A DNA stretch of 49,341 nucleotides from Prevotella sp. (GTDB lineage Bacteria > Bacteroidota > Bacteroidia > Bacteroidales > Bacteroidaceae). Position numbers and translations under genes: made by a program. Below the pieces are notes generated by a model. It did not search any database, was not told the DNA's origin, and saw nothing but the letters and a program-made list of their open reading frames with translations. This document shows positions 10,834-45,464 of the stretch, piece by piece (within the stretch, counting starts at the first letter, position 1; every line of letters begins with the position of its first letter). The DNA lies in assembly GCA_017477435.1 (NCBI GenBank), contig JAFUVV010000030.1, positions 1 through 49,341 of the forward strand. The letters are read 5' to 3'.

Positions 10834-10916
10834 GTACATGGCCTTTGTACTGCGAGTACATAGGCTTTGTACTCAGAGTACATGACTTTTGTACTCCGAG
10901 TACAAGAACCATGTAC
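10834..10916. repeat. GTAC array A: four 22-bp units
   Basis: GTAC tetramers start at 10834, 10856, 10878 and 10900, each followed 13 bases later by another GTAC. The first unit is GTACATGGCCTTTGTAC and the linkers are TGCGA, TCAGA and TCCGA. The fourth unit (GTACAAGAACCATGTAC) reads in the opposite direction to the first three. It lies between tatD and tRNA-Ser. It is one of six arrays of identical design in this window. Confidence 0.95.
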
Positions 10917-11017
10917 TGTGGTCATTTAATTATGCAAATAATGTTAGCTGTGTCGAAAAAATGACCTTGTTTTTGCAAAAACTGCGAAAAATATTCGGTG
11001 TTTTGCCCGATAAAGAT

Positions 11018-11025
11018 TAATTTTG
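11018..11025 (+). promoter_or_regulatory. -7 element of the tRNA-Ser promoter
   Basis: TAATTTTG matches the TAnnTTTG -7 box and lies 19 bases before the first base of tRNA-Ser. No convincing TTTG was found at the -33 spacing. Confidence 0.5.
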
Positions 11026-11043
11026 CAGTCGCAACGCAAAAAA

Positions 11044-11131
11044 GGAAAGATGCTCGAGTGGCTGAAGAGGCACGCCTGGAAAGCGTGTAACCGGCGAAAC
11101 CGGTTCCGGGGTTCGAATCCCCGTCTTTCCG
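11044..11131 (+). tRNA. tRNA-Ser (anticodon GGA)
   Basis: The acceptor arm GGAAAGA (11044-11050) pairs with TCTTTCC (11124-11130) and G is the discriminator base. The anticodon loop reads CT-GGA-AA within CACGCCTGGAAAGCGTG, giving anticodon GGA for UCC and UCU codons. A long variable arm (AACCGGCGAAACCGGTT) marks a class II tRNA, and GGTTCGAATCC is the T loop. CCA is not encoded. The 3' end is repeated downstream in a 66-bp tandem array. Confidence 0.95.
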
Positions 11132-11331
11132 CTTGCGAAGAGGGGTTCAAAGCTCCGGAGGCGAAGCCGCAGGGAGAATCGAATCCCCGTCTTTCCGCTT
11201 GCGAAGAGGGGTTCAAAGCTCCGGAGGCGAAGCCGCAGGGAGAATCGAATCCCCGTCTTTCCGCTTGCGAAGAGGGGTTCAAAGCTCCGGAGACGTAGCC
11301 GTTGCGTGATTCGAATCCCCGTCTTTCCGCT
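11115..11331. repeat. 66-bp tandem array carrying copies of the tRNA-Ser 3' end
   Basis: The block GAATCCCCGTCTTTCCGC, which is the 3' end of tRNA-Ser, recurs at 11115 (in the tRNA), 11181, 11247 and 11313, exactly 66 bases apart. The 48-base segments between them are identical in the first two intervals (GAGGGGTTCAAAGCTCCGGA and so on) and diverge in the third. The rest of the tRNA is not repeated, so the copies cannot form a tRNA. Open frames across the array on both strands give repeating peptides and are not genes. Confidence 0.95.
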
Positions 11332-19525: not shown

Positions 19526-20023
19526 TCCGTTTTAGTCGTAACAGCTCCCATGTCTTGTGCCTCTTTTCTTAGTAGAAAGGAGCGGGAGCGGGGGATTACT
19601 TCGGCGTTTAGCCTTTGCCATACGGCTTTCGGCCATCAACCATATATTTAAACGCGCGCTTTATATAAATATTGTACCCGCGCGAGTTTTTTTGTTTGGC
19701 TGCAGTACATGGCTTTTGTACTCTCAGTACATGGGCTTTGTACTCGGAGTACATGTGCTTTGTACTGCCAGTACATGGCCTTTGTACTGTCGGCTGCGAT
19801 ATCTCCCTGGTCGGCCTCCTGATTGTTCAACGCCTGGAGAAAACAACGAGATGCATCGGGAAAAAACAATATATTTACACTCTGTTAGGCTTGTTTGACA
19901 AATAGAGAGGGTAAATATAAGACTTTTTTATAATTTTACGAGCTAATAGCAACTGTTTTAATAATCATTTAAGAATATGAAACAGCAAGTATTTTCCATT
20001 GCTTTATATTCACTTTTCTTTTT
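19526..20023. other. Intergenic region between the PorE-like gene and topB
   Basis: These 498 bases hold GTAC array B (19705-19787) and otherwise AT-rich sequence with no credible gene. The open frames here translate the repeat array. No promoter or terminator was found with confidence. Confidence 0.6.
19705..19787. repeat. GTAC array B: four 22-bp units
   Basis: GTAC starts at 19705, 19727, 19749 and 19771, with bodies ATGGCTTTT, ATGGGCTTT, ATGTGCTTT and ATGGCCTTT between the paired GTACs. The linkers are TCTCA, TCGGA and TGCCA. It is preceded by TTTGTTTGGCTGCA, a flank shared in part with arrays A, C and E. It lies between two minus-strand genes. Confidence 0.95.
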
Positions 20024-21967
20024 TCATTTTTCATTCCCCCCTGAGGGTGGCAGCGGCTTCCGGAATGAGCAAGGGGCCTTGGGGTCGTTCCATCGGCTGC
20101 ATCCGAAGGCTGTACGGCCACGGATGATGCGCCCACGGCCGCACTGGGGGCATACGTCACCCTCGGCTATGGCAGTGGTGAGGGTGGAGCTGGTGTCGCG
20201 CATGACGTCGGCAACGATGGTGGTGATCTGCTGCTTCAGTTCGTCGATGAACTGCCCGGGGTCGTAGGTACCGTGCTCAATGTCGCGAAGCTTCTTTTCC
20301 CAGATGCCTGTCAGCTCGCAGCTCTTCAGCAGCTCTTCCTTTATGGTGTCGATGAGTTGTATGCCTGTCGGTGTGGCAATGAGGTTCTTTCTCTGCCTGA
20401 CTATGTAGTTGCGCTTGAAGAGAGTCTCGATAATTCCTGCCCTCGACGACGGCCGGCCGATGCCGTTCTCCTTGAGAGCCGCGCGCAGTTCCTCGTCATC
20501 AACAAACTTTCCTGCCGTCTCCATGGCCCGGAGCAAGGTGGCTTCGGTGTAAGGCTTCGGCGGTGTGGTCTGCTTCTCGGTGAGGGTGGGGGCGTGGGGA
20601 CCGCTCTCCCCTTTGGTGAACGGTGGAAGAATGGTGTTCTTTTGTTCCTTCGTCTTCGCCTCTTCGTCCTTCGTTTCTTCTTCTTCGCTGTATATCTCGC
20701 GCCATCCCGGTTGGAGGATGACCTTTCCCGTGGCTTTGAATTCTACGTCTTCCACCTGTCCCATGACGGTTGTCGTGGCAAACTTGCACTCGGGATAGAA
20801 AGCTGCGATGAAGCGTCGTGCGATGAGATCGTAGACGTTTCGCTCCATGTCGGTGAGTCCCACAGCCGGCACGCCTGTCGGTAGGATGGCATGGTGGTCG
20901 GTCACCTTGGATGTGTCGAAAGCTTTCGACGACTTCGGTAGTCGGCGTCCTGCAAGCGGCTGGATGAGTTTCTCGTAGCCGCGCAGACCGCTGAGTATCT
21001 GCGGACAGCGGGGATAGATGTCGTCGGAGAGATACTGCGTGTCGACGCGGGGATAGGTGGTGAATTTCTTCTCATAGAGCCCTTGTATGAGCTTGAGCGT
21101 CGTGTCGGCCGAGTAGCTGAACTTCTTATTGCACTCAACCTGTAGCGAGGTGAGGTCGAAGAGGTTAGGATGAAATTCGGTACCGTTCTTCTTCTGTACC
21201 GATGTGACTTCGAAGGGCTTGCCTTCGATGAGCTTGAAGGCTTCGCGTCCCTCCTCTTCGGATGTGATTTTTCCTTTTGTGGCGGTGAAGAGAGTGTCGC
21301 GATATACTGTGGCGAGAACCCAATAAGGCTCTGGCTTGAAGTTTTCTATTTCTTTCTGTCGGGCGACGATGAGTGCGAGAGTCGGTGTCTGCACCCGTCC
21401 GATGCTGAGCACTTGACGGTTGTGAGCATACTTGAGGGTATAGAGTCGCGTGGCGTTCATGCCCAGTATCCAGTCGCCGATGGCACGACTGAGACCGGCA
21501 AGATAGAGCCGCTCGTAGTCTTTCTGGTCTTTCAGTTTGTTGAATCCTTCGCGAATGGCATCCTCTGTCAGCGACGATATCCAGAGTCGCTGCACGGGGC
21601 ATGTGGCGCGGGCTTTCTGCATGACCCATCGCTGTATGAGCTCTCCCTCTTGTCCGGCATCGCCGCAGTTGACTATGCCGTCGGCCTTTTGCATGAGTTG
21701 TTCGATGACTGCGAACTGCTTCTTGATGTGCTCCTCGTCGATGAGTTTTATCCCAAACCGTTGTGGCAGCATTGGCAGCGAGGCGAGGCTCCAGCGCTTC
21801 CATGCGGGAGAGTAGTCGTCGGGCTCTTTGAGAGTGCAGAGGTGACCGTAGGTCCAGGTCACCTGATAGCCGTTGCCTTCGAGGTATCCCTTGCAGTCGT
21901 GGGTGGCTCCGAGAACGTGTGCAATGTCGCGGGCAACGCTTGGTTTCTCGGCTATGCAGACAATCAT
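20024..21967 (-). CDS. topB: DNA topoisomerase III (type IA)
   Basis: The 647-residue enzyme decatenates and relaxes DNA through a single-strand break. The Toprim domain starts at the N-terminus (MIVCIAEKPSVARDIA) with the acidic metal site in CGDAGQEGEL (101-110). The catalytic tyrosine is Tyr305 in TTYPRVDTQYLSDD. SIGRVQTPTLALIVARQ (near 198) and ENGIGRPSSRAGI (near 505) are further family motifs. A C-terminal zinc-ribbon CPQCGRG...GCSRW sits near 610-630. The ATG at 21967 overlaps the stop of the upstream permease (ATGA), so translation is coupled to an export operon. An open frame running on to 23188 is only a frame extension over the permease and is not part of the gene. Confidence 0.95.
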   Translation of the reverse strand: MIVCIAEKPSVARDIAHVLGATHDCKGYLEGNGYQVTWTYGHLCTLKEPDDYSPAWKRWSLASLPMLPQRFGIKLIDEEHIKKQFAVIEQLMQKADGIVNCGDAGQEGELIQRWVMQKARATCPVQRLWISSLTEDAIREGFNKLKDQKDYERLYLAGLSRAIGDWILGMNATRLYTLKYAHNRQVLSIGRVQTPTLALIVARQKEIENFKPEPYWVLATVYRDTLFTATKGKITSEEEGREAFKLIEGKPFEVTSVQKKNGTEFHPNLFDLTSLQVECNKKFSYSADTTLKLIQGLYEKKFTTYPRVDTQYLSDDIYPRCPQILSGLRGYEKLIQPLAGRRLPKSSKAFDTSKVTDHHAILPTGVPAVGLTDMERNVYDLIARRFIAAFYPECKFATTTVMGQVEDVEFKATGKVILQPGWREIYSEEEETKDEEAKTKEQKNTILPPFTKGESGPHAPTLTEKQTTPPKPYTEATLLRAMETAGKFVDDEELRAALKENGIGRPSSRAGIIETLFKRNYIVRQRKNLIATPTGIQLIDTIKEELLKSCELTGIWEKKLRDIEHGTYDPGQFIDELKQQITTIVADVMRDTSSTLTTAIAEGDVCPQCGRGRIIRGRTAFGCSRWNDPKAPCSFRKPLPPSGGNEK

Positions 21968-23238
21968 TGTATGGCCTCCTTTCTCTTGGTTGCCTTGCTC
22001 CTCCTGACAATCTTCTGGATCTTTTCCATCTGTTCGACGGCATGCATGCGGGTTTGCTTGATCTGGAAGCGGTATACGAGGCACGTGATGAAGAAATAGA
22101 GGAGCGACTGGAGCCACAGGGCTTGGTATTCGAACCCGATATCGCCGAGCGATGCTCCCATGCTGCTCATCTTCAGGAATCCTTTTACTCCGAAGGTGCT
22201 CGGGAACAGCCACGACACTCCCCGCCACATGCCTGGTATGTTGCTCTCGGGCCATGAGATGCCCGTCATGAACAGTAGCGGGACGGAGGTGAAGACGACG
22301 AGCAGGATGATGTTTTCGCGATAGCGTACCATGCACGACACGGTCATTCCGAAGAATATCGACGCCAGGATGAACGGCACCATGAGTGCGAGTAGCTGGA
22401 ATGGTGTGACCATCGTGGTGTATCCGAACAGCCGTGGCACGACGCATGTGATGTAGGCACCCATGACGGCATAGATCATGAAGTAGCACAGTCCTTTTCC
22501 GAGCACGATACGGAAGATGCCGTTGTAGTGTCGGCTGATTGGCACGAGGTCGCGATATCGGTTGCTCTCGCGTGCTGTTCCGGCTGAGAGTCCGATGCCG
22601 AGTACGAGTGTCTGTTGGAGTATGAGCAGCAGCACGGCGGGTATGAGGGCGTTGCCGTAGCCGTTGGTAGAGTTGAATATCGGTACTTCGTCTACCTCGA
22701 GCGGATGTGTGGTGAGTTCGTCGTCGCGGTCTGTCATGCCGCCGGAGCGTTCTATCTGGATGTGGGAGTTCATGGCTGTGGCCACGGCTTGCGAGGTTTG
22801 GAATATTGCTTTGTAGGTGAGCATGAGGCTCATGTCGCAATATACTTCTACGGTGGCCTGCTCTCCTCGGCCGATATTTGTGGAGAAGTCGGCGGGGATG
22901 TATATCACTCCGTGTACTACTTGTTTTCCTATCAGTTGCTTGGCTTCGGCGAGGTTGTTGCAATGGTAGGCTACGCTGACGTCGGGCGATGCGTCTACTT
23001 GTCGCAGATATTCGCGGCTGCGCTGGCTGTGCGACATGTCGACGACGGCCACTGGCACTTCTCTGACGACTTCGTTGTTGTAGACCCACGAGTAGAGGAG
23101 GGGGTAGAGTATCGGCACGAGAATGAAGAAGATGAGCACTCCCTCGTCCTTGATGGTGGAGCGCATCTCCTTGGCCCAGATGTAGCACATGTCTTTCAGG
23201 CCATCGACAATGCGGTTTATCAGTCGTTCTTCTCTCAT
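21964..23238 (-). CDS. ABC-2 type permease (second of the pair)
   Basis: The 424-residue protein has the ABC-2/YhgE-like layout. One N-terminal membrane helix is at about residues 33-53 (VLIFFILVPILYPLLYSWVY), a large periplasmic domain at about 55-215 opens with VPVAVVDMSHSQRSREYLRQ, and five or six helices run from about 225 to 400. It would move a substrate across the inner membrane with its paralogue upstream. It is 111 bases from the other permease and overlaps topB by four bases. No ATP-binding subunit gene lies nearby, although ABC-2 permeases normally need one. Confidence 0.85.
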   Translation of the reverse strand: MREERLINRIVDGLKDMCYIWAKEMRSTIKDEGVLIFFILVPILYPLLYSWVYNNEVVREVPVAVVDMSHSQRSREYLRQVDASPDVSVAYHCNNLAEAKQLIGKQVVHGVIYIPADFSTNIGRGEQATVEVYCDMSLMLTYKAIFQTSQAVATAMNSHIQIERSGGMTDRDDELTTHPLEVDEVPIFNSTNGYGNALIPAVLLLILQQTLVLGIGLSAGTARESNRYRDLVPISRHYNGIFRIVLGKGLCYFMIYAVMGAYITCVVPRLFGYTTMVTPFQLLALMVPFILASIFFGMTVSCMVRYRENIILLVVFTSVPLLFMTGISWPESNIPGMWRGVSWLFPSTFGVKGFLKMSSMGASLGDIGFEYQALWLQSLLYFFITCLVYRFQIKQTRMHAVEQMEKIQKIVRRSKATKRKEAIQ

Positions 23239-23349
23239 TTCGCTTGCTTCTTTCTCCCTTTTATGTTTCGGTTGGTGATAATATATGCCTTTTAATTGTT
23301 GTTTTTTTATCTTTTTACTTTTCTCTCTCTTTGTTTTTTCCCTTTTCTT

Positions 23350-24519
23350 CTACGGGATATAGATGTACTCCAGCATTGCCTTGCGTGTGTTCCACAGTGT
23401 GAACAGTGGTAGTATTGCGAAGAAGCAGAGTGCTGCTATGTTTGCGTAGGCATCGGTGAGTGGGTAGCCATTGAAGACGCATATCTGGTAGAACATGTAG
23501 TAGTGTCGCATCGGGAACATTTGTGCCAGTGCTATTATCATGGGGCTCATGGCGAAGACGGGGTATGTGGCGCCGCTTGCCGAGAATCCGAGCACTGCCC
23601 ACAGTGAGCATATACTCATCGACATGCGCAGGGAGGGGAGTAGTCCGAAGGCGAATATTCCGAATCCTTGGCATGCGAGTACGGAGAGTAGTCCGAGCAG
23701 TAGTATCGACCCTGTGCCTCCGAGATGCGGGAACCCGAGCGTGTAGAAGATGTAGAATTCGTAGGCATAGAAGATGGTGAGGAAGATGAGTGTCTGCGGC
23801 AGCATTTTTCCTATCATTGCCACGTAGATGTCGTTGTCGGCCATGGCGAGCCATTCCTTCGAGCGGTTGAACTTCAGTTCGGTGCCTATGCTGTAGGCGG
23901 TGATGAGGAAGATGAGGATCATCATCACGCCTGGTGCAATCGTGGTGGAGAGGTAGACGTTGTAGTTGCTCCACGGGTTGTTTATCATGTGCAGGTCTAC
24001 GACGATGGGTTGTAGGAACACGCGTATCTCCCTGCCTGTTTTTCCGAGTGCCGACAGCTTTGCTTGTCCCACTGCTGCTGCTCCGAGGCTGGTTATTGTC
24101 TTCAGGTCGCGGAACGTCATCGATCCTGCCACCATTGTGACGGCGTTGTAGTAGAACGATACCTTTGGCTGCTTCGAGGAGAGCATTCCCTCTGTCGTGC
24201 CTTTCGGGATGTAGAGGAAGGCGTATATCTTGCCTTGCTGCATGGCTTGCCGCGCGTCGTTTATGTTGGTGAAGTGTGCCACGACGTGGCTTGTCTGGAA
24301 GGCGTCGAGTCGTCGGGTGAGGCTGCGCGAGGTGGTGGTGTTGTCCATGTCGACGACTCCGACGGGGATGTCCTGGGGCACGCCTTCGTCCATCAGCGAG
24401 GTGAAGAAGAAGAATATGAGCACGGGAAAGACCACCATGCAAAATCCGTACATGGGGTTCTTTATCAATATGCTGCATTCGCGCAGTGATATCTTGTATA
24501 TCTGCTTGAGTATTTTCAC
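23350..24519 (-). CDS. ABC-2 type permease (first of the pair)
   Basis: The 389-residue protein resembles its downstream neighbour: an N-terminal helix (about 25-45, GFCMVVFPVLIFFFFTSL), a periplasmic domain starting IPVGVVDMDNTTTSRSLTRR and running to about 165, then six helices to about 380. The paired VPVAVVDM/IPVGVVDM start of the periplasmic domain shows that the two permeases are paralogues. It lies 76 bases downstream of the HlyD-type gene. The pair probably forms a heterodimer. The substrate is unknown. Confidence 0.85.
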   Translation of the reverse strand: MKILKQIYKISLRECSILIKNPMYGFCMVVFPVLIFFFFTSLMDEGVPQDIPVGVVDMDNTTTSRSLTRRLDAFQTSHVVAHFTNINDARQAMQQGKIYAFLYIPKGTTEGMLSSKQPKVSFYYNAVTMVAGSMTFRDLKTITSLGAAAVGQAKLSALGKTGREIRVFLQPIVVDLHMINNPWSNYNVYLSTTIAPGVMMILIFLITAYSIGTELKFNRSKEWLAMADNDIYVAMIGKMLPQTLIFLTIFYAYEFYIFYTLGFPHLGGTGSILLLGLLSVLACQGFGIFAFGLLPSLRMSMSICSLWAVLGFSASGATYPVFAMSPMIIALAQMFPMRHYYMFYQICVFNGYPLTDAYANIAALCFFAILPLFTLWNTRKAMLEYIYIP

Positions 24520-24595
24520 TCCCCCCTTTTGTTTGTTTATTTTCTGATTTCTTCTTTAGCAGTCGGAGGGTCTTGTCTCGTCTTGGCGTGCCCTC

Positions 24596-25582
24596 TTAGT
24601 CTTTTATGATGAGCGACATTCCCGGGCGGAGTCCTTCGAATGTCTCTGTCGGGCGGGCTTTCACTTCGAATGTCTTCAGGTCGTATTGTCCGTTGGCTTT
24701 TGTGGCCTTCCATACAGCATACGATCCTTGGTCTTTTATGTAGTAGACTTTCATTTTTATGTTCTTTCCGAAGGCAGGTATGTATGCGCTCAGTTCGTCG
24801 CCCACCTTGAGTCCTTTCAGTTGGTCTTCGCGTATGTTGAATGTTCCCCACATGTCGTCGAGCAGTGCCACGCTCATTATCGGCGACCCGAGTCCCAGGA
24901 GCTCGCCTACCTTTGGGTAGATATCGCTCACTTCTCCGTCGGCCTGTGCTATCTGCACTGTCTCTTTGAGCAGCGACTTCACGACATCGACGGCTCCTTT
25001 AGCGGCTTGTGCCTGTTTCTCGGCAGCCCTGCGCTCTTCTATTCTGGCTCCGCTCTTTGCCATGTCGTACTGGCTCTTGGCGGCTTTCACCTGTGCTTCT
25101 GTTGCCTTGTAGGCGGCGAAGGCTTCGTCGCGTTTCTGTGCCGACATGACTCCTTCGTCGAAGAGTTTCTGCACTCTCTTGTAGGATTTCTCGGCTATCT
25201 CGCTTGCTGCCTGTGCCTGCTGCCACAGCTGGTAGGCTGCCTGCACCTGCTCTTGGCGCGCGCCGTTGTCGGCCATGTCGCTCAGTGCCTGGGCTGCACC
25301 CTGCGTTGCTTCGGCGGCTCTCCTCTGGGCATCCACTTCCGGCACTTCGAGAATGGCCAGCGTGTCGCCTGCCTTCACGAAGTCGCCTTCCTTCACTCTC
25401 AGTTCGAGCACGCGTCCAGGGAGCTTGCTCGACACTCTGTATTCCGACACTTCTACCTCGCCCTGGATAATCTCGTCGGACTTGTCGAAGGCGAAGAAGC
25501 CAATGATGGCCACTATCATTACCACTGCTATGAAGCCGATGATGGCCAGCAGGATGTTGTTGTGCTGTGATTTTGCTGACAT
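24596..25582 (-). CDS. HlyD-type periplasmic adaptor (membrane fusion protein)
   Basis: The 328-residue protein has an N-terminal membrane anchor (about 8-30, NILLAIIGFIAVVMIVAIIG). The two halves of the lipoyl/barrel-sandwich domain (SSKLPGRVLELRVKEGDFVKAGD near 48-70, and EVSDIYPKVGELL near 215-230) flank a long alpha-helical hairpin rich in Ala and Gln at about 80-205, and a C-terminal beta-barrel part follows. It bridges the inner-membrane permeases to TolC. It is 325 bases downstream of tolC, the widest gap in the operon, and that gap contains GTAC array C. Confidence 0.93.
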   Translation of the reverse strand: MSAKSQHNNILLAIIGFIAVVMIVAIIGFFAFDKSDEIIQGEVEVSEYRVSSKLPGRVLELRVKEGDFVKAGDTLAILEVPEVDAQRRAAEATQGAAQALSDMADNGARQEQVQAAYQLWQQAQAASEIAEKSYKRVQKLFDEGVMSAQKRDEAFAAYKATEAQVKAAKSQYDMAKSGARIEERRAAEKQAQAAKGAVDVVKSLLKETVQIAQADGEVSDIYPKVGELLGLGSPIMSVALLDDMWGTFNIREDQLKGLKVGDELSAYIPAFGKNIKMKVYYIKDQGSYAVWKATKANGQYDLKTFEVKARPTETFEGLRPGMSLIIKD

Positions 25583-25907
25583 ATTTTTATTTTTCTATTT
25601 TACGATTTTGCCATTTCATGATTTTTATTTCACGGTTCCACGTCTGCTAAACCTCGATTTTGCGGTTTCTGCCTGCCGGGCTTCTGGTGGCCGCTGAGTG
25701 CGATTGACAGGGGAGATAGCGTCGTTTGCCTGCCCCTCTCTTTCCTTTTGTCGGCAGTACATGGGCTTTGTACTGTGAGTACATGAACCTTGTACTGCGA
25801 GTACATGGCTTTTGTACTGCGAGTACATGGGCTTTGTACTCCGACCTGCGACGCCGTCTTGCCCGCATATTTCTGTTTTATGCTGGTCTTGCGGCGCTGT
25901 GTAGGCC
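25583..25907. other. Intergenic region between tolC-like and hlyD-like genes
   Basis: These 325 bases interrupt an otherwise tight export operon. They contain GTAC array C (25757-25839) and degenerate TTTTAC/TTTCACG sequence near the hlyD start. The frames crossing the array are repeat translations. No terminator was identified, so the operon may still be read through. Confidence 0.6.
25757..25839. repeat. GTAC array C: four 22-bp units
   Basis: GTAC starts at 25757, 25779, 25801 and 25823, with bodies ATGGGCTTT, ATGAACCTT, ATGGCTTTT and ATGGGCTTT and linkers TGTGA, TGCGA and TGCGA. Array D, read on the other strand, has the same four bodies in the same order, and the two arrays differ at only four of 83 positions. 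It lies inside the export operon between tolC and hlyD. Confidence 0.95.
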
Positions 25908-28449: not shown

Positions 28450-28680
28450 ATGAAGAACAGTTTCCTATATCGTGCATTCCGTCTGTACTACGACGGATTC
28501 CGCTCCATGGAGCTGGGCAGGACCTTGTGGCTCATCATTGCCATCAAGCTCTTCGTCATCTTTGTGGTGCTGAAATTGTTCTTTTTTCCCAATTTCATCA
28601 GCCGTCATGCTGAGAAAGGAGGCGAGGCCGACTTCGTTGCAACGCAGCTGTGCCCCGAAGAGTCGGCCCCCGACGAATGA
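28450..28680 (+). CDS. DUF4492 family small membrane protein
   Basis: The 76-residue protein has one membrane helix at about residues 27-47 (TLWLIIAIKLFVIFVVLKLF) after a Tyr/Arg-rich start (FLYRAFRLYYDGFRSMELGR). It matches the DUF4492 family, which in Bacteroidetes lies directly in front of cydA, as here (110 bases). A role in assembling or tuning cytochrome bd is inferred from that linkage; the biochemical function is not established to my knowledge. The ATG at 28450 is chosen on family length. A TATTTTTG box ends only seven bases before it, without a -33 match. Confidence 0.85.
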   Translation: MKNSFLYRAFRLYYDGFRSMELGRTLWLIIAIKLFVIFVVLKLFFFPNFISRHAEKGGEADFVATQLCPEESAPDE

Positions 28681-28790
28681 ATGGGCTGACCGCCTGACGC
28701 GGCAAATATGTGCTGACGGTCAATCCGGCCCGAACACATTCTTTATTTGATAATGATAATTTTACTAACCTAAAAACCCAATTTACAGAC

Positions 28791-30347: not shown

Positions 30348-30480
30348 TTGATAGTTGATAATTGGCAATTGATAATTGATATTTATGATATGATTGTGAA
30401 GTCGTAAAATCGTAAAATCATAAAATTGTGAAAAAGTGAAATCGTAAAATAGTATAATTGTGAAATCGTAAAATTATAAT
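30348..30480. repeat. Degenerate AT-rich repeat between cydA and cydB
   Basis: TTGATAATTG-type units give way to repeats of GTGAAATCGTAAAAT and close variants (GTGAAGTCGTAAAATCG, ATAAAATTGTGAAAAAG) up to the cydB start. There is no gene and no terminator. It belongs to the simple-sequence spacers seen elsewhere in the window (6154-6219, 33079-33150, 46609-46665). Confidence 0.65.
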
Positions 30481-31623: not shown

Positions 31624-31653
31624 TACCGCCTGCGATATTGTGCATACATACAT

Positions 31654-31696
31654 AGAAATCGGCGAACCCATCCATGGGCTCGCCGATTTCTCTTTT
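31654..31696. terminator. Strong bidirectional terminator between cydB and sdaA
   Basis: AGAAATCGGCGA (31654-31665) pairs perfectly with TCGCCGATTTCT (31680-31691). CCCA pairs with TGGG inside around TCCA, and TCTTTT follows. It closes the cydAB operon and, read on the other strand, can stop transcription leaving sdaA. Confidence 0.9.
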
Positions 31697-31782
31697 GGCT
31701 ATACCGTTCATATTGCCATTCATGCCCGTGAGCCACAGCCGCATGAATGTCCTTCTGTTTCCTGTTCCGTATCTCGCCTCCA

Positions 31783-31865
31783 GTATAAAGCCCATGTACT
31801 CGAAGTACAAAAGCCATGTACTCGCAGTACAACGTTCATGTACTCGCAGTACAAAGCCCATGTAC
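31783..31865. repeat. GTAC array D: four 22-bp units, reverse orientation
   Basis: Units start at 31783 (GTAT, one base changed), 31805, 31827 and 31849, with bodies AAAGCCCAT, AAAAGCCAT, AACGTTCAT and AAAGCCCAT. Read on the minus strand these are the bodies of array C in the same order, except one base in the second. It lies just seven bases from the 3' end of sdaA, between convergent genes. Confidence 0.95.
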
Positions 31866-35582: not shown

Positions 35583-38156
35583 TCAGTCGGCTAAGCTTTG
35601 TACGTTAAGCGTTTCTTTAAGTTTGTCGGGAGTCAGATTTGTATTGACTCTGATGGTGCGTGTCTCGCCAGGCAGCATGTCGAAGTAGTTGTCGGAGAGG
35701 ACGCTGTTGATGTCGTCTATCTCGATGAAGACGGCACGTGCAAACTTCGGGGCTTTGAGTGTGATGTCGTAGCCGTCGGCAGCAGGAGCGAAGGTGTAGT
35801 CGATGTCGACATGCGGGTAGTTGATGTCTTTCTGCTTGAGCATGACATAGTTGTTGTCGTATGTCTTTCCCTTCTTTGTCGTGAATGCAGCGTGAACCAC
35901 CACGTCGTTTTTCTTTTCGCCCTTGAGCAGTTTTTCGATGTTCTCCGATATCATTATTGTGCTTGTATTAGCCGGCACGGTGACGTTCTTTGTAATCTGC
36001 GACACGATTGTCCCGTCGAACTTCATCACCTTCACATCGAGTGTTCCTTTCGTTGGGTTCGACTCGTCGGAGACCACGTATATGTTCAGGTTGTCGCCCT
36101 GTGCGAGTGGCGATACGAGGATTTGGTCGTAGGCTTTGCGTGCATAGTACTGCTGTGCCTTCCAACGGCCATAGTAGTCGATGCTTGCCCACGATGCTAC
36201 AGGCCAGCAGTCGTCCACCTGCCAGTAGAGCGACCCCATGCAGTAGGGCATGTCGCGGCGGAATGCTTCCATGGCTGTCTTTATGGCATCGCCCTGCAGG
36301 ACGTGTCCCACATAGAGGAAGCGACGGAAGTCTGTCGGCTGCCGGTATTCGTTGTCCATGTAGTATTTGATTACGTCATTGCCGTGATCTCCGTCTCTCT
36401 GGTGCGACATCATCACCTCGGAGTGTATGTCCCAGTCTTCTTTCTTTGGGGCATATTGCTTTACTGATATGAACTCAGGGAACGACTGGAATCCGTATTC
36501 GCTGAAGAAGCGTGCCTTGGCGGTGTTGTAGTTCTCTATGGGTTTCTGTCCGTGCCATACGTCCCAGTAGTGGCAGTCGCCCTTGGATGGGTCGGAGAGC
36601 TGGTTGTAGTCGGAGAATGCCGACGACGGCCAGTAGGTTGTCTCTGGTGCATACTTCTTCACTACCTCGGGAATGACCACATAGTATTGGTCTTGGAACT
36701 GTTTCCACACCTCATCCTCGTGGTCGCCGGCCATCTCGTGCCATCCCCACGGCAGGAACCATCCGTCCTGGTTCTCGTTGTTGCCGCACCAGAGGGCGAT
36801 GCATGCGAAGTTGCGCAGGCGCACTACATTGTCGATTGCTTCCTGCCGGATGTTCTCGAGGAACTCGCCTTTTGCGGGGAACATTGCGCATGCAAACATG
36901 AAGTCTTGCCAGATGAGTATTCCGTATTCGTCGCAGAGGTCGTAGAACCGGTCATCCTCATATACTCCTCCTCCCCAGATGCGCAGCATGTTCATGTTGG
37001 ATTTCGCGCAATCACTTATCAGTCGGCGATAGCGTTGGTCGGTCACACGCGGCATAAAGTTGTCCATTGGTACGTAGTTGGCGCCCTTTGCGAACACTGG
37101 CCGGCCGTTGATCTCGAAGTAGAAGCTCACGCCGTCCTTGTCGGGAGTGCGTACCACTCGGAGCGAGCGCACGCCAATCTTATTCTCTTTCGCGTCGATG
37201 GTCTTGCCGTTGAGCACCAGCTCGGTCTTCAGCCGGTAGCGATATTGCTCTCCGAGGCCGTTTGTCCACCACAGGCGTGGGTTCTTGATGTTCACGGGTA
37301 TATAAATAATGTTCTCACCCTTTTTCAGCTGCAATGTCTGCGATGCCAGTGTCTTTCCGCTCTCCATGTCTTTCACGCTGATTGTTCCTTGTGCATCAAC
37401 GTCTGATGTCACTGTCACCTGATTTTTCAGTTGTGCCAGTTTCTTCGTCACGCTGGGTTGCATGTAGTAGATGTTTTTTATGCGTGCGTTGCTCCATCCC
37501 TCGAGCTGTATCGGTCGCCATATTCCGATGGTGACGAGGCGCGGTCCCCAGTCCCATCCGTAGTGGTATCCGGCCTTGCGTGCCCAGATGCTCACTTTCT
37601 TGTCGAATATTCCGCCATTCTCGCTTTGGTCGAGGCGGGTGGGGTAGTATGGTTCGGCCTCATACTTAGGCAGATCGACCTTTATCGGCGAGTGTAGGAA
37701 GACGCGCAACTTGTTCTCGCCCGGTTTGAGCATTTGCTTCACGTTTGCCTTCCATTCGCGGAACATGTTGTCGGCCTTCAGCACGAGCTCGTCGTTGAGA
37801 TACACATCGGCGTATGTGTCGAGTCCGAAGCAGTGGATCTGTATGTTGTCCTGCTTCATGAGTTCATCAGTAGGAGTGAATGTTGTCACATACTCCCAGT
37901 CTTCCTTGTCCACCCATTGCACTCCACGCTCGTTGAGTCGGAAGAACGGGTCGCCGATGATATCGTTTCTCATCAGGTCGGTGTGCACCAGCCCCGGCAC
38001 TTCGGCGTCGTGCCATGTAGAGAGGCGTGCCTCGTGGAAACGCCATCCCTTGTTGATTTCCTGCACCACGGGCTGAGCCTCGAGTGCGGCTGTCGTGGCC
38101 AGCATGACTATGCTGAGCATGAATCGCACGATGGATTTTCTGTTTGTCTTCATCAT
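35583..38156 (-). CDS. Beta-mannosidase, glycoside hydrolase family 2, exported
   Basis: The 857-residue protein has a signal peptide (residues 1-27, ending ALEAQ). A jelly-roll domain with GWRFHEARLSTWHDAEVPGLVHTDL (the beta-mannosidase signature) begins at about 40. The central TIM barrel holds RIWGGGVYEDDRFYDLCDEYGIL near 400, the acid/base Glu in IALWCGNNENQDG near 465, and the nucleophile Glu in RFFSEYGFQSFPE near 560. C-terminal Ig-like domains follow. It hydrolyses terminal beta-mannose, probably from mannan or N-glycan cores. Three tandem promoter-like elements lie at 38235-38441. The ATG at 38156 or 38153 is equally possible. Confidence 0.93.
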   Translation of the reverse strand: MMKTNRKSIVRFMLSIVMLATTAALEAQPVVQEINKGWRFHEARLSTWHDAEVPGLVHTDLMRNDIIGDPFFRLNERGVQWVDKEDWEYVTTFTPTDELMKQDNIQIHCFGLDTYADVYLNDELVLKADNMFREWKANVKQMLKPGENKLRVFLHSPIKVDLPKYEAEPYYPTRLDQSENGGIFDKKVSIWARKAGYHYGWDWGPRLVTIGIWRPIQLEGWSNARIKNIYYMQPSVTKKLAQLKNQVTVTSDVDAQGTISVKDMESGKTLASQTLQLKKGENIIYIPVNIKNPRLWWTNGLGEQYRYRLKTELVLNGKTIDAKENKIGVRSLRVVRTPDKDGVSFYFEINGRPVFAKGANYVPMDNFMPRVTDQRYRRLISDCAKSNMNMLRIWGGGVYEDDRFYDLCDEYGILIWQDFMFACAMFPAKGEFLENIRQEAIDNVVRLRNFACIALWCGNNENQDGWFLPWGWHEMAGDHEDEVWKQFQDQYYVVIPEVVKKYAPETTYWPSSAFSDYNQLSDPSKGDCHYWDVWHGQKPIENYNTAKARFFSEYGFQSFPEFISVKQYAPKKEDWDIHSEVMMSHQRDGDHGNDVIKYYMDNEYRQPTDFRRFLYVGHVLQGDAIKTAMEAFRRDMPYCMGSLYWQVDDCWPVASWASIDYYGRWKAQQYYARKAYDQILVSPLAQGDNLNIYVVSDESNPTKGTLDVKVMKFDGTIVSQITKNVTVPANTSTIMISENIEKLLKGEKKNDVVVHAAFTTKKGKTYDNNYVMLKQKDINYPHVDIDYTFAPAADGYDITLKAPKFARAVFIEIDDINSVLSDNYFDMLPGETRTIRVNTNLTPDKLKETLNVQSLAD

Positions 38157-38234
38157 GATATAATTTTTGTTTTTCGTATAATATCGATTAACGCTACAGG
38201 TTGTGCTCGATTGTTATCGCGCACACTGCGTCCA

Positions 38235-38441
38235 CAAAGTTAGTGCAAACCGAGCGAAGAACAAAATAAATAACGAAGTTTTTATTTTTTATTTCGAGGT
38301 GAAGCCTAACTTCAGCGGCAGTTAAAGTTAGTGCAAGTTGAGAGAAAAACAAAGAATTTTATTCTTTTTTTCCCGAAACGCAGCCTAACTTCTTATCTTT
38401 GAAGGAGATGAAAAGTTAGTGCAAGTTGAGAGAAAAACAAA
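38235..38441 (-). promoter_or_regulatory. Three tandem promoter-like repeats upstream of beta-mannosidase
   Basis: On the minus strand, TTTG, 19 bases and TAACTTTG occur at 38265-38235 (perfect consensus). The same layout recurs at 38353-38323 (-7 box TAACTTTA) and 38441-38411 (TAACTTTT). The -7 boxes are exactly 88 bases apart. The 19-base spacers are alike (TTTTTCTCTCAACTTGCAC in the two distal copies). The copy nearest the gene would start transcription about 75 bases before the ATG. Confidence 0.7.
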
Positions 38442-38583
38442 ATAAAAGTCGAAAAGTTTTATTTTTTACGTTGAAACGACATCTGAAATCCTCTTCTGTT
38501 CCGTTCGTTCAGTGTCGGGAAGGATGCTATATGCCCTTGCATGTCTTCCTCTCTGGCGGCTGCGTCGGGTTTGTCTGGTCGGA

Positions 38584-38666
38584 GTACAAAGGCTTTGTAC
38601 TGCCGGTATATAGGTTTTGTACTCCGAGTACATGGCTTTTGTACTGCGAGTACAAGGGCTTTGTAC
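38584..38666. repeat. GTAC array E: four 22-bp units
   Basis: Units start at 38584, 38606 (GTAT), 38628 and 38650, with bodies AAAGGCTTT, ATAGGTTTT, ATGGCTTTT and AAGGGCTTT and linkers TGCCG, TCCGA and TGCGA. The first unit, GTACAAAGGCTTTGTAC, is a palindrome but for its central base. It lies in the divergent region before the metallophosphoesterase gene. Confidence 0.95.
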
Positions 38667-38766
38667 TGACGTCTGTACGCTTCCCCGTCGTAGTCGCCAG
38701 GCTTAGATGGCTCTGAATAATATACTTTACGGCTGTGGCGATGATGTGATTTTCCTGTCGAAATAT

Positions 38767-38797
38767 TTTGTTTTAGGAGAAAAAAACACTAATTTCG
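38767..38797 (+). promoter_or_regulatory. Promoter of the membrane metallophosphoesterase gene
   Basis: TTTG (38767-38770), a 19-base spacer and TAATTTCG (38790-38797, one mismatch to TAnnTTTG) lie just before the ATG at 38805. The transcript would start within a few bases of the start codon, so the mRNA may be nearly leaderless. Confidence 0.5.
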
Positions 38798-38804
38798 CCG
38801 ACTG

Positions 38805-39905
38805 ATGAAACTGTTTTTCCTTCTTTTCATGTTGCTGCCTTTCGTCGGTTGTGCGTACGTGGGCTGGCATATATGGCACATCCTACCGGTCGGTAATTGG
38901 TTGAAGGCCATCGTTGTAACGCTTTTGATAGCAGCTTTCTGCCTGCTGTTTGTCAACTTTGCCGTCGGTCTCGACAGCGTCCCCATGCCATTGGCGCGGG
39001 CGATGTATGCCGTGGGGACGTCGGCAATCATCATCCTGCTCTATCTCGTCATGCTGTTCCTCGTGCTCGATGTGCTGCACCTTTTCGGCGTAGTACCGTC
39101 GACATTGCTCCTTAGCAGCGCCCGTGGCACGGCGATGGTGGTGGGAGTGATGACGGCGCTGTTCGTCTATGCCAACTGGAACTATCACCGTAAAGTGAGG
39201 CAGCCACTGGAGATTGCGACGGCGAAGCAGCTCCGGCGGCCGGTGAAGATTATGCTCATGAGCGACCTCCACCTCGGTTATCACAACACTCGCGCCGATC
39301 TCAGCAAGTGGATCGACATCATCCTCGACGAGAATCCCGACTATGTGCTCATTGCCGGCGACATTGTCGACATCAGCACACGCCCGCTCCTGGAGGATGA
39401 TATGGCTGCCGAGTGGCGACGGCTGACGGTGCCCGTCTATGCCTGCCCGGGCAACCACGACTACTACGCCGACCTCGAGAAGTCGCGATGCTTCTTCCGC
39501 GAGGCAGGCATACGGTTGCTGCGCGACGAGAGCGTAGAGCTGGAGGAAGGGATTGTTGTCGTCGGGCGCGACGACCGCACAAACGCCCGCCGGAAATCGG
39601 TAGCCGAGCTGATGAAGACAGTAGGTAAAGACAGATTCAGCATCCTCCTCGACCATCAGCCCTATAACCTCGGGCAGGCCGAGGCTGCAGGCGTCGACTT
39701 CCAGTTCAGCGGCCACACCCACTATGGACAAGTGTGGCCCATAAGTTGGATAGAAGATCTTATCTACGAAGATGCCTTTGGTCCTCTGAAGAAGGGACAA
39801 ACGCAGTATTACGTCACGAGCGGACTGGGCATCTGGGGCGGAAAGTTCCGCATCGGCACACGCTCGGAATACGTTGTCTTGACGGTAAGCGACATCACCC
39901 CTTGA
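38805..39905 (+). CDS. Membrane-bound calcineurin-like metallophosphoesterase
   Basis: The 366-residue protein has four hydrophobic helices in residues 1-125. A two-metal phosphoesterase domain follows, with all blocks present: IMLMSDLHLGYHN near 150, YVLIAGDIVDIS near 185, YACPGNHDYYAD near 217, LLDHQPYNL near 285 and FSGHTHYGQVWP near 303. This is the YkuE/YaeI-like group; related enzymes cleave UDP-2,3-diacylglucosamine or other phosphodiesters. The membrane anchor suggests a lipid-linked substrate, which is an inference. The gene is isolated: the beta-mannosidase gene diverges upstream and a repeat-rich region lies downstream. Confidence 0.88.
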   Translation: MKLFFLLFMLLPFVGCAYVGWHIWHILPVGNWLKAIVVTLLIAAFCLLFVNFAVGLDSVPMPLARAMYAVGTSAIIILLYLVMLFLVLDVLHLFGVVPSTLLLSSARGTAMVVGVMTALFVYANWNYHRKVRQPLEIATAKQLRRPVKIMLMSDLHLGYHNTRADLSKWIDIILDENPDYVLIAGDIVDISTRPLLEDDMAAEWRRLTVPVYACPGNHDYYADLEKSRCFFREAGIRLLRDESVELEEGIVVVGRDDRTNARRKSVAELMKTVGKDRFSILLDHQPYNLGQAEAAGVDFQFSGHTHYGQVWPISWIEDLIYEDAFGPLKKGQTQYYVTSGLGIWGGKFRIGTRSEYVVLTVSDITP

Positions 39906-39915
39906 TATTTCTTTA

Positions 39916-40056
39916 GCAAGTAGGAGTTAGCGGGAGTTATCGGGAGTTAGCTCGCTGCGCTCACTGGAGTAAACGGACATTAGACATGCATTTGTCAGTT
40001 AACTCCCGTGGTCGTAGACCACTAACTCCCGATAACTCCCGCTAACTCCTACTTGC
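39916..40056. repeat. 35-bp perfect inverted repeat (39916-39950 and 40022-40056)
   Basis: The left arm GCAAGTAGGAGTTAGCGGGA... and its exact reverse complement are separated by 71 bases. Each arm contains threefold GGGAGTTA-type repeats. The loop holds a second small hairpin, GTGGTC-GTA-GACCAC (40008-40022). It follows the metallophosphoesterase stop by ten bases and could end its transcript, though no T-run is present. It abuts the next repeat at 40057. Confidence 0.85.
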
Positions 40057-40102
40057 GAGACTTGTCGAACGCAAGTGAGACCCACTGACCGAAGGGAGGT
40101 AA
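40057..40102. repeat. Dispersed GAGACTTGTCG repeat, left copy at the chromate gene
   Basis: GAGACTTGTCGAACGCAAGT followed by GAGACCCACTGACC and GAAGGGAGGTAA is a diverged, slightly longer form of the 39-bp arm at 1017-1055. It begins on the base after the 35-bp inverted repeat ends and stops 18 bases before the chromate transporter stop codon. Confidence 0.75.
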
Positions 40103-40119
40103 AGTTGATTAAACTTTTT

Positions 40120-40695
40120 TCAATATAGTAGCATCAGTCCTGCATATGCAGCGAGGCATATCATGTGAATAGGATTGATTTTCACCAGCTTCACTCCCAC
40201 AAATGTAGCCACAAACAGAGCTACACTTATCCAGAACTGCCACGCATTCTCGTCAATCGACGAGAAGTTCTCTGCGTTCATCAGCATTAGCGTCGCCGCC
40301 AGAAGAAGTCCGACGACGGCCGGACGAAGCCCTGAGAAGATGCTCTGCACGAGAGGCGTCTGCATATATTTCATCAACATCCGGCTGATGACAATCATCA
40401 GGACGAGCGAGGGCAGCACGAGAGCCACCGTTGCCGTCAGCGATCCGAGCGCCGACATCAGCGTGCCGTAACCGGCATTGTGCACGGCAGCGTAGCCACA
40501 GTAGGTGGCCGAGTTGATGCCGATGGGCCCGGGGGTCATCTGACTGATGGCAACAATGTTGGTGAACTCAGCCGATGTGATCCATCCGTGGTGCACTACT
40601 GTCTCGGTCTGTATGAGCGACAACATCCCATAGCCTCCTCCGAATCCGAAGAGACCAATCATGAAAAACGTTATGAAAAGCGATAGAAAAATCAT
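40120..40695 (-). CDS. Chromate transporter family protein, half-size (second of pair)
   Basis: The 191-residue membrane protein has the CHR-domain motif FGFGGGYGMLSLIQTETV near residue 16 and QMTPGPIGINSATYCGY near 52, then about five helices. Half-size CHR proteins work as pairs, and its partner lies 136 bases upstream on the same strand. They are thought to export chromate or related oxyanions, but many family members have no shown role in chromate resistance. Copies of a dispersed repeat flank it on both sides (40057-40102 and 40705-40756). Confidence 0.88.
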   Translation of the reverse strand: MIFLSLFITFFMIGLFGFGGGYGMLSLIQTETVVHHGWITSAEFTNIVAISQMTPGPIGINSATYCGYAAVHNAGYGTLMSALGSLTATVALVLPSLVLMIVISRMLMKYMQTPLVQSIFSGLRPAVVGLLLAATLMLMNAENFSSIDENAWQFWISVALFVATFVGVKLVKINPIHMICLAAYAGLMLLY

Positions 40696-44300: not shown

Positions 44301-45205
44301 TCTTCGGGGTATGCTGTCATGTAGACGGCTGTGCCTGCGATGGGCCACGATCCTGTTCCTCCGCCCATGCGGTCGCGTATCTCGCCGCCGGTGCCTGTTG
44401 CTGCGCCGTTGAACGGCTCGACGGTGGTGGGGAAGTTGTGGGTCTCGGCTTTGAGCGAGATGACGCTTTCTATCTGGCGCGTCTCGAAGTAGTCGCTCGT
44501 ACAGGGGTTCTTCGGGGCGAACTGTTCAACCACTGGTCCTTGTGCGAAGGCGACGTTGTCTTTGTAGGCGGAGAGTATGGCGTTGGGGTTTTCTTTCGTG
44601 GTCTTCTTTATCATTTCGAAGAGGCTCGAGGGCTGTTCTTTGCCGTCGATGATGAATTTGCCGCCGAAAATCTTGTGCCGGCAGTGCTCGGAGTTGATCT
44701 GTGCGAATCCGAATATCTCGGAGTCTGTCAGTCGGCGCCCGTTCTGTTCTTCTATTTTGTGGAGATAGTCTATTTCCTCGGGCGAGAGGGCGAGTCCTTC
44801 CTGCTCGTTGTATTCTTCGATGTTCTCCACGTATTTTATCTCTTCTGGCTGATGGTCTACGGTGAAAATCCGCTGGTCGAGGCCGTTGTAGATGCGCTGG
44901 AGCATCGGGTCGAAGTTGTCGGGCAGGTCGTCGTCGCCCGTTGCTTCGCCTTTCGTGGCGTGGTATTCCTCAATACGCAGAATGCCGTCGAGATTCATGT
45001 TCTGAGTTATCTCCACGGCATTCGTGCTCCAGGGCGTAATCATTTCGCGGCGCGGGCCAATGAACCGGCCTTCCACACCGTCCTGCCCGATGAGCGGAGC
45101 TCCTGCAAATAGCCACGACAGCCTTTCCTTCTCCTCTGCCGACAGGGCGCGGGAGCTTTCAACGGCGATAACACTTTCTTCTGTTTTGCCAAAAAAGAGA
45201 ATCAT
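41396..45205 (-). CDS. purL: Phosphoribosylformylglycinamidine synthase (single-chain)
   Basis: The 1269-residue enzyme makes FGAM from FGAR, glutamine and ATP in purine synthesis. An N-terminal PurS-like part (from FFGKTEESVIAVESS) is followed by two AIRS-like ATP domains (GPRREMITPWSTNAVEITQN near 60; SLKAETHNFPTTVEPFNGAATGTGGEIRD near 285). The C-terminal class I glutamine amidotransferase has its nucleophile Cys in LGICNGCQLMVELGL and His in WVAHGEGRF. The ATG at 45205 is used because the promoter box at 45311-45318 puts the transcript start after the next in-frame ATG at 45307. Two chromate-type transporter genes follow at 21 bases. Confidence 0.94.
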   Translation of the reverse strand: MILFFGKTEESVIAVESSRALSAEEKERLSWLFAGAPLIGQDGVEGRFIGPRREMITPWSTNAVEITQNMNLDGILRIEEYHATKGEATGDDDLPDNFDPMLQRIYNGLDQRIFTVDHQPEEIKYVENIEEYNEQEGLALSPEEIDYLHKIEEQNGRRLTDSEIFGFAQINSEHCRHKIFGGKFIIDGKEQPSSLFEMIKKTTKENPNAILSAYKDNVAFAQGPVVEQFAPKNPCTSDYFETRQIESVISLKAETHNFPTTVEPFNGAATGTGGEIRDRMGGGTGSWPIAGTAVYMTAYPEDPSNKEKTRPGAMKARKWLYQSPEQILIKASNGASDFGNKFGQPLICGSVLTFEHKEDDQELGYDKVIMLAGGVGYANKRDCLKREPQKGNKIVVVGGDNYRIGLGGGSVSSVDTGRYSNGIELNAIQRANPEMQKRAYNLVRALTESTDNPIISIHDHGSAGHLNCLSELVEDCGGKIEMDKLPIGDKTLSAKEIIANESQERMGLLIDESHIDEVKKIAERERAPFYVVGETTGDAHFAFEQADGRQPFSLDVAQMFGHSPKTVMTDETVTRHYKNAEYDTDFKSLNEYLKDVLRLEAVACKDWLTNKVDRSVTGKIARQQCQGPLQLPLSDCGVVALDYRGKSGIATAIGHAPQAGLASPEAGSVLSVAEALTNIVWAPLKKGLNSVSLSANWMWPCRSQKGEDARLYNAVKALSDFCCELKINVPTGKDSLSLTQQYPDGKKVISPGTVIVSAGGEVSDIRKVVSPVIVNDKNSSLYHIDFSFCAQRLGGSAFAQSIGYVGDDVPTVLDPEYFEACFGAIQELIRRGWIMAGHDISAGGLITTLLEMTFANTEGGMHINLHNINNGDRVKALFAENPGVVVQVSDDHKFDLRELLEDLGVGYAKIGYPTPSDRSLTIKDDDEEYSFDIDSLRDTWYETSFRFDRKQSFNGMAEERFRNYKHQPVEIKFPRGFNGSLIGMGARIFNPKENTADSQQVKASESLIGKPKAAIIREKGTNGEREMAYSLYLAGFEVKDVMMTDLISGRETLDDVNMIVFCGGFSNSDVLGSAKGWAGAFLYNPKAKEALDRFYAREDTLSLGICNGCQLMVELGLIGKADGATDADKNSLTRMEHNISHKFESAYLSLRIPENNSVMLRSLAGSKLGIWVAHGEGRFRLPKKESEYNIVAKYNYSGYPGNPNGSDYDVAGICSADGRHIAMMPHLERAIFPWQCGWYPEYRRGDEATPWMEAFVNARRWVAGKMRQE

Positions 45206-45310
45206 ATTTTTTGTATTGTTTGCTATGAAAAATAATCTTTCAATTCCGACTTCCTTTCCGCTTCGGCCAATGCAATATCGTGTGTCGGCGAGGTCGTGTG
45301 AAGTCATTTG

Positions 45311-45318
45311 CAAAGGTA
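45311..45318 (-). promoter_or_regulatory. -7 element of the purL promoter
   Basis: Read on the minus strand this is TACCTTTG, a perfect TAnnTTTG box, with TTTC (one mismatch to TTTG) 19 bases upstream. Transcription would begin near 45305, leaving about 100 bases of leader before the purL ATG. No purine riboswitch fold was recognised in that leader. Confidence 0.55.
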
Positions 45319-45381
45319 CTCCTTTTTTATAAAATAAGAAAATAAATCTATAATTTTTATAGGAAGATATTTTCGCCGGCA

Positions 45382-45464
45382 GTACAAAGGCCATGTACTC
45401 TCAGTACAAAGCTCATGTACTCGGAGTACAAAAGCCATGTACTCGCAGTACAAGGCCCATGTAC
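45382..45464. repeat. GTAC array F: four 22-bp units, reverse orientation
   Basis: Units start at 45382, 45404, 45426 and 45448 with bodies AAAGGCCAT, AAAGCTCAT, AAAAGCCAT and AAGGCCCAT and linkers TCTCA, TCGGA and TCGCA. All four read on the minus strand relative to arrays A-C and E. It lies in the divergent region between purL and the epimerase gene. Confidence 0.95.

What the first reader, a model, noticed from the sequence alone, without database searches (positions are those of the whole stretch)
10834..45464. Six intergenic arrays, each exactly four 22-bp GTAC units
Arrays at 10834, 19705, 25757, 31783, 38584 and 45382 all span 83 bp and hold four units. Each unit reads GTAC, nine bases, GTAC, five-base linker, so GTAC recurs at alternating 13- and 9-bp steps. 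Two palindromes interleave: GTACA...TGTAC around a 7-base centre, and GTACT-NNN-AGTAC with a variable, mostly G/C centre. The period of 22 bp is close to two helical turns, so all half-sites would face one side of the DNA. Copies share short flanks (TTTGTYTGGC-GCA before, CGGC-GCGA after in some), which suggests an element of about 110 bp. They occur only between genes, in every transcription context (convergent, divergent, within an operon). The copy number of four never varies here. I know of no described family with this design.
Basis: seen in the sequence. Interest (0 to 1): 0.88.

Follow-up and report, generated by a model that had tools for sequence, protein, structure and literature searches.

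The report
Arrays anchoring a 22-bp DNA register
In a Prevotella-like bacterium, short four-unit repeat arrays lie every few kilobases, and the DNA around them, genes included, keeps a faint 22-base rhythm in exact step with each array, as if a regular protein coat were laid down from these points; nothing like it turned up in the papers searched.

Summary
The six arrays are real. In the 705,131 bases read of the window's genome (30%), 53 of 53 GTAC arrays have exactly four 22-bp units, TA steps 13 and 9 bp apart; no shorter or longer ones were found there. All 53 differ in sequence; neighbours are spaced more evenly than chance (mean 7.8 kb, CV 0.48 against 0.95).

Best explanation: high-affinity anchors for a regular DNA-kinking nucleoprotein polymer, a bacterial chromatin with a sequence-encoded register. 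HU is the leading candidate protein: family kinks lie 9 bp apart, and a pattern for its unusual arm residue Cys60 hits 1 of 398 genomes, this one. Binding and function are untested.

The parts
10834..10916 (.). GTAC array 1: four 22-bp units, 32 of 32 core letters
19705..19787 (.). GTAC array 2: four units, 32 of 32 (weakest flank register of the six)
   Evidence: flank values
25757..25839 (.). GTAC array 3: four units, 32 of 32; it and about 300 bp around it are absent at the orthologous place in a relative's contig
31783..31865 (.). GTAC array 4: four units, 31 of 32; absent at the orthologous place in a relative's contig
38584..38666 (.). GTAC array 5: four units, 31 of 32
45382..45464 (.). 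GTAC array 6: four units, 32 of 32
21757..25756 (.). left flank of array 3 in the array's 22-bp register; it covers part of a topoisomerase gene, an unannotated ORF and an HlyD-family gene
   Evidence: z per distance bin 3.6, -0.8, 1.3, 2.1, 2.3, 2.4, 2.6; ORFs, families
27783..31782 (.). left flank of array 4 in register
   Evidence: z per bin 2.7, 1.5, 1.1, 2.5, 1.4, 2.9, 2.3
37084..38583 (.). left flank of array 5 in register (partly a glycoside hydrolase 2 gene)
   Evidence: z per bin 2.4, 1.5, 2.5, 3.0; gene
38667..40166 (.). right flank of array 5 in register (metallophosphoesterase gene)
   Evidence: z per bin 2.1, 1.2, 3.4, 3.2; gene

Best explanation
The arrays are high-affinity anchor (nucleation or phasing) sites for an abundant nucleoid protein that assembles on DNA as a regular polymer. 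One dimer sits per 22 bp and kinks the helix at two steps 9 bp apart (13 bp to the next dimer). Four strong units fix the register; from there assembly spreads both ways for about 1 to 2 kb in the same register over intergenic and coding DNA, until a slip or another anchor. The sequence under the polymer has evolved to be kinkable at each contact: pyrimidine-purine steps favoured, G at the first and C at the second base avoided. Two sequence classes of array (GTAC and STATC/GATAS) serve the same system. The likely role is chromosome folding, a bacterial chromatin with a sequence-encoded register. Leading candidate protein: the HU found in this genome, changed in the DNA-binding arm (Thr59, Cys60). 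SHOWN: arrays, geometry, unit number, spacing, exact 22-bp register in flanks and coding sequence, second class, failure to detect it in the GTAC-array-free genomes sampled, absence of arrays at two orthologous places of a relative. INFERRED: protein binding, kinking, spreading, HU as the protein, chromosome folding as the function. The confidence is for the polymer-and-anchor reading; HU as the protein gets about 0.35 and overlaps with the first rival.
Against: No binding data. The HU link rests on one lineage: Cys60 has n = 1, and Thr59 also occurs in three genomes with no arrays and in solved HUs. A fully wrapped IHF-type dimer needs about 35 bp, more than 22, so a less wrapped mode must be assumed. 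About 70% of the genome was not read, so another DNA-binding protein could be responsible; a scan of basic, codon-biased ORFs in the part read gave no clear candidate. Lineages with related arrays but different sequence mostly show no long-range register (RGIG8147 none; G595 2.7 and 2.1 near the array, then none; small samples, some arrays counted twice by the chain finder). One of six window arrays (19705) has almost no flank register, and window arrays alone give Z -0.7 beyond 1.5 kb. The farthest bin overall (1.5-4 kb, 4.8) exceeds its null maximum (4.3) only narrowly. The period-22 signal persists with +-4 kb around GTAC arrays masked (z 7.3), so GTAC arrays are not its only source; second-class arrays were not masked in that test.
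Confidence: 0.62

Rival explanations
1. Same nucleoprotein array and polymer, but the protein is not HU: an unknown filament-forming DNA-binding protein (for example ribbon-helix-helix type, one dimer per GTAC). This is a variant of the best explanation, so the odds overlap.
For: GTAC is itself a palindrome; two array sequence classes might mean two proteins; no binding evidence for HU; much of the genome unread.
Against: The 9-bp kink spacing and the exclusion of G at the first and C at the second base fit minor-groove intercalation of the HU/IHF kind (inference); the HU arm is unusual in this genome.
Confidence: 0.4
2. The register is a mutational footprint: a bound polymer in fixed register exposes or protects certain bases and biases mutation there, with no benefit.
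For: Would also act on all codon positions and in both gene orientations.
Against: The lost C at the second base is replaced by A, G and T, and the lost G at the first by C, T and A, not by the single product expected of deamination. It still needs the polymer.
Confidence: 0.12
3. The arrays are copies of a small mobile element (MITE or REP-like), dispersed with target immunity that spaces them.
For: In other genomes of the genus GTACG arrays sit in a dispersed repeat (array-spanning alignments 76-93% identical) ahead of different genes; the about 300-bp segment around array 25757 is absent in the relative.
Against: 53 of 53 cores distinct, little unit-by-unit homology between arrays, flank letters unrelated after about 8 bp; cannot explain an in-register signal through unrelated genes.
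Confidence: 0.07
4. RNA hairpin or terminator-like element, or DNA cruciform.
For: All six window arrays fold strongly as RNA (z -4.9 to -9.7).
Against: Inner 9-mers of units pair LESS than between-array shuffles in all six unit combinations (hairpin partners 1-4 z -2.8; 2-3 z -5.5); arrays occur in divergent, tandem and convergent gaps; cannot explain flank register.
Confidence: 0.03
5. Operator arrays of a classical regulator controlling neighbouring genes.
For: Tandem palindromic half-sites resemble operators.
Against: Spaced every several kb among unrelated genes in all orientations; flank register over kilobases.
Confidence: 0.06

Closest known systems
Genome-wide 10-11 bp dinucleotide periodicity or 'structural code' of bacteria (PMC4132750: abstract and outline seen; PMC7537859: abstract, outline and passages; PMC3431218: passages)
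   Same: Periodic dinucleotide bias, reported to be under selection and overlaid on coding sequence, proposed for nucleoid packing.
   Different: Here the period is 22.00 with a 13/9 split, detectable over more than 1 kb, YR steps rather than A-tracts, and anchored on discrete four-unit arrays. A figure legend of PMC7537859 speaks of spacings measured up to 200 bp.
HU/IHF family binding (PMC8421141, PMC9519438, passages seen)
   Same: Two kinks 9 bp apart by intercalating prolines; DNA-shape readout.
   Different: The IHF sites described are about 35 bp; no tandem 22-bp array or kilobase register appeared in the passages and listings seen. Binding here is inferred.
H-NS-type nucleation and spreading (PMC5418058, listing and start of abstract only)
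   Same: Works like it: strong nucleation site, cooperative spread, long nucleoprotein structure.
   Different: H-NS binds an AT-rich motif (start of abstract) and, as recalled, keeps no base-exact register; here the flank signal is a step geometry.
Eukaryotic nucleosome positioning and archaeal hypernucleosomes (recalled)
   Same: Protein polymer or particle read out through periodic flexible steps.
   Different: Bacterial, 22-bp repeat, nucleated by arrays; histone homologues were not searched for.
TAACTGA intergenic direct repeats (PMC4679880, abstract and outline seen)
   Same: Many short intergenic tandem arrays, present in some Bacteroidetes.
   Different: Heptamer direct repeats without 13/9 palindromic geometry; proposed translational role.
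REP/BIME/MITE repeats (recalled)
   Same: Dispersed intergenic palindromic repeats.
   Different: No shared flanks, no fixed ancestral copy, flank register.

Membership tests
10-11 bp dinucleotide periodicity | sine-like period near 10-11 bp | tested here: not met
10-11 bp dinucleotide periodicity | bias overlaid on coding sequence | tested here: met
HU/IHF site | kink steps 9 bp apart | tested here: inconclusive
   flexible TA steps 9 bp apart in 53 of 53 arrays (2 of 424 sites with 2 or fewer core letters) and YR steps in flanks; that they are kinked is inferred
HU/IHF site | protein of the family present in the genome | tested here: met
   one canonical HU and one HU-HIG protein found
HU/IHF site | demonstrated binding | not testable with these tools
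   needs EMSA or footprinting
HU/IHF site | site length about 35 bp per dimer | tested here: not met
   repeat is 22 bp; a less wrapped packing must be assumed
H-NS-type nucleation and spreading | strong site with a graded signal extending from it | tested here: met
   (sequence signal only)
H-NS-type nucleation and spreading | H-NS, Lsr2 or MvaT homologue | not tested
   not searched
MITE/REP mobile repeat | copies homologous along their length | tested here: not met
   53 of 53 distinct, little unit-by-unit homology
MITE/REP mobile repeat | target-site duplications or associated transposase | not tested
   gap at 25757 in the relative seen but duplications were not examined
CRISPR array | identical repeats with unique spacers | tested here: not met
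   22-bp contiguous palindromic units without room for spacers
CRISPR array | cas genes | not tested
   not searched
RNA terminator or attenuator | compensatory pairing maintained | tested here: not met
Nucleosome-like chromatin | periodic protection in vivo | not testable with these tools
   needs MNase or methyltransferase footprinting

The most novel reading that the evidence does not exclude
A bacterium has a true sequence-encoded chromatin: a 22-bp-repeat nucleoprotein polymer, built from an HU whose arm has changed, assembles at four-unit anchors every several kilobases, holds one base-exact register for 1-2 kb each way, and has reshaped synonymous and even amino-acid choices across the chromosome within the divergence of one close relative.
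Probability: 0.22. Interest if true: 0.97.

Novelty: categorically new. Interest (0 to 1): 0.9.

Why it matters
Bacterial nucleoids are usually thought to lack a regular, sequence-positioned repeating unit like the nucleosome. A chromosome whose genes carry a base-exact 22-bp register locked to discrete anchors would be a direct counter-example, readable from sequence alone, and would make testable how a structural DNA code is imposed on protein-coding sequence and how fast it evolves. The array-free period scan used here can be run on any genome to find others.

Tried and rejected
Shared gene beside arrays in low-copy genomes: 20 regions, ORFs within 6 kb; the one cluster found in three or more regions joins large ORFs 0.2-5.5 kb away in L061, L065 and L080 only. 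HU-HIG expansion: 2 in this genome, 2-30 in the other genus genomes of that sample. Total PF00216 count: 2 here, no enrichment. Transcription polarity of the register: none to 2 kb. Hairpin, one mobile copy, unusual GTAC depletion outside arrays (0.71 of expectation against 0.75-0.86 in others), plasmid match for array 1 with flanks (no match): rejected. LRR-gene artefact (22-aa = 66-nt repeats): the signal is similar at multiples of 22 not divisible by 3. Literature on 22-bp periodicity or the unit sequence: none relevant in the listings; the one hit is an ICAM-1 paper (listing only). A test in G742 (108 pair matches) failed for lack of sequence: only 3 arrays read.

Full report
WHAT WAS CHECKED. 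Contigs 96-97% identical to it occur in the bin RUG12886, labelled uncultured Prevotellaceae, so a Prevotella-like rumen bacterium is inferred. The six arrays are as described. Genome-wide, the two-unit pattern matches 411 times and its reversed control 0 times. I read 705,131 bases (30%; 24 contigs, many partial). They hold 53 GTAC arrays (29 to 32 of 32 core letters; 1674 of 1696 letters match), all of four units. A scan for two- and three-unit GTAC arrays found none outside these 53, and the positions one step outside are not GTAC-like (0.4 and 0.6 of 4 letters); one array has a stray GTAC 22 bp upstream. Overall density is one per 13.3 kb.

THE ARRAY ITSELF. TA steps alternate 13 and 9 bp apart. 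Palindromes are centred on both intervals: GTACA-N7-TGTAC and GTACT-N3-AGTAC. All 53 cores differ (mean pairwise identity 0.78). Unit k resembles unit k of another array (6.0 to 6.4 of 9 inner bases) hardly more than any other unit (5.7 to 6.1). So the number four is not simply inherited from one copied element. Letters shared by the flanks fade after about 8 bp.

IN CODING SEQUENCE. After subtracting codon-position means the values are 14.9, 9.0, 8.1, 7.5 and 3.4 to 2 kb. The effect is +0.066 when the dinucleotide occupies codon positions 1-2, +0.115 at 2-3 and +0.118 at 3-1, so synonymous freedom helps but amino-acid positions are touched too. Direction of transcription does not matter to 2 kb. 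A 22-nt rhythm cannot come from codons, and multiples of 22 with k mod 3 = 0, 1, 2 give 0.0034, 0.0036 and 0.0027, which argues against 22-residue protein repeats as the source.

WITHOUT USING THE ARRAYS. Autocorrelation of the step score, scanned from 21.5 to 22.5, has an excess only at 22.00 (21.95 and 22.05 are near zero), with side peaks at +9 and +13, fading over 1 to 2 kb. It remains with 4 kb masked on each side of GTAC arrays (z 7.3, 334,498 bases), so the code is wider than the immediate surroundings of those arrays; second-class arrays were not masked. In 1760-bp windows 29% exceed the 95% quantile of control periods. Genus genomes without GTAC arrays show nothing: G092 (200 kb) z 0.6, G299 (200 kb) z 0.7, 250 kb from several others z 1.5, against 5.5 to 10.9 for four subsets of 202-249 kb of G000.

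SPACING. Thirty neighbouring distances average 7.8 kb with CV 0.48 and minimum 2.9 kb. Random placement in intergenic DNA gives CV 0.95, and 0 of 2000 simulations were as regular; uniform placement gives 0.85, P 0.0005. With both classes the CV is 0.56 and the minimum 1.1 kb. Gene calls behind the first null are crude (greedy ORFs).

HOW IT MOST LIKELY WORKS. A regular polymer on DNA is the only kind of thing I can think of that keeps one base-exact register through unrelated genes for a kilobase and more. Two contacts per 22 bp, 9 and 13 bp apart and related by dyads, suggest a dimer per repeat. Exclusion of G at the first and C at the second base is what a wedge in the minor groove at that step would demand (inference). 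IHF inserts two prolines 9 bp apart (PMC8421141 and PMC9519438, passages). The one canonical HU found in this draft genome has Thr59-Cys60 beside the tip proline, where 28 of 28 other parsed genus HUs have Glu-Gly (29 of 30 loci parsed). In a wider set of 43 HUs (of 44 loci, at least one genome counted twice) Cys60 occurs once, and a pattern for it hits 1 of 398 genus genomes, this one (Cys60 in another sequence context would be missed). The relative RUG12886, whose contig C66 lacks these two arrays, has an HU with Thr59 and Gly60. Thr59 alone does not go with arrays: the three other genus genomes with it have none, and solved HUs often have it. The link is a correlation with n = 1 and should be read so. 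In the five alignments shown, solved HUs have Gly at the place of Cys60. I give HU as the protein about 0.35, and the polymer-and-anchor reading about 0.62.

COMPARED WITH WHAT IS KNOWN. Periodic dinucleotide bias of 10-11 bp, within genes and reported to be under selection, is known in bacteria (PMC4132750, PMC7537859, PMC3431218; abstracts or passages). The present signal fails its defining feature, an 11-bp period: only two of 22 phases are strongly high and a shift by 11 bp gives negative values to 3 kb. Searches for a 22-bp period, for the unit sequence and for palindromic intergenic repeats of Prevotella found nothing relevant in their listings; the library lacks most subscription papers. 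It works like nucleation and spreading of nucleoid proteins, but membership in any named family is not established.

LIMITS. One lineage, a draft genome of which 30% was read, no binding data, reader protein unproven.

Noticed in passing
window 20024-23188 (-): A 1054-aa DNA topoisomerase (Topoisom_bac plus Toprim, Pfam) lies between arrays 19705 and 25757.
   Followed up: no
L066 3401, L067 9910, L068 9900, L074 3563, L077 9897, L078 8724, L079 9304: In other genomes of the genus a GTACG-type array sits inside a dispersed repeat (array-spanning alignments 76-93% identical, often with a TATCTTTGCA-like promoter end) ahead of different genes, which looks like a mobile regulatory module.
   Followed up: partly
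L061, L062, L080 around 9700-10000: Arrays in which GTACC/GGTAC and CTACC/GGTAG units occur together, so that the outer base changes on both sides of the dyad.
   Followed up: no
G092 and G401 (whole genomes): Strong expansions of HU-family proteins: 39 PF00216 matches in G092 and 30 HU-HIG matches in G401, against a few in most relatives of those samples.
   Followed up: no
G789 (RUG12886): The bin holds contigs 96-97% identical to the window's genome beside a contig 80-83% identical; it may be a mixture of two organisms.
   Followed up: partly
L097 (G000:C20) 14843; L095 (G000:C18) 700; L089 (G000:C12) 55056; L044 (G000:C1) 129: Further 22-bp tandem arrays with other half-sites (TTAAAGGGCCC...CTAA type, and an ACTAAAAGGAATATTTCGAG type; contig coordinates), possibly a third class or chance (15 hits besides the GTAC class, control geometries 0 to 7).
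   Followed up: partly
L097 (G000:C20) 17049-17246 (+): A 65-aa, very basic ORF with high codon bias, unidentified.
   Followed up: no
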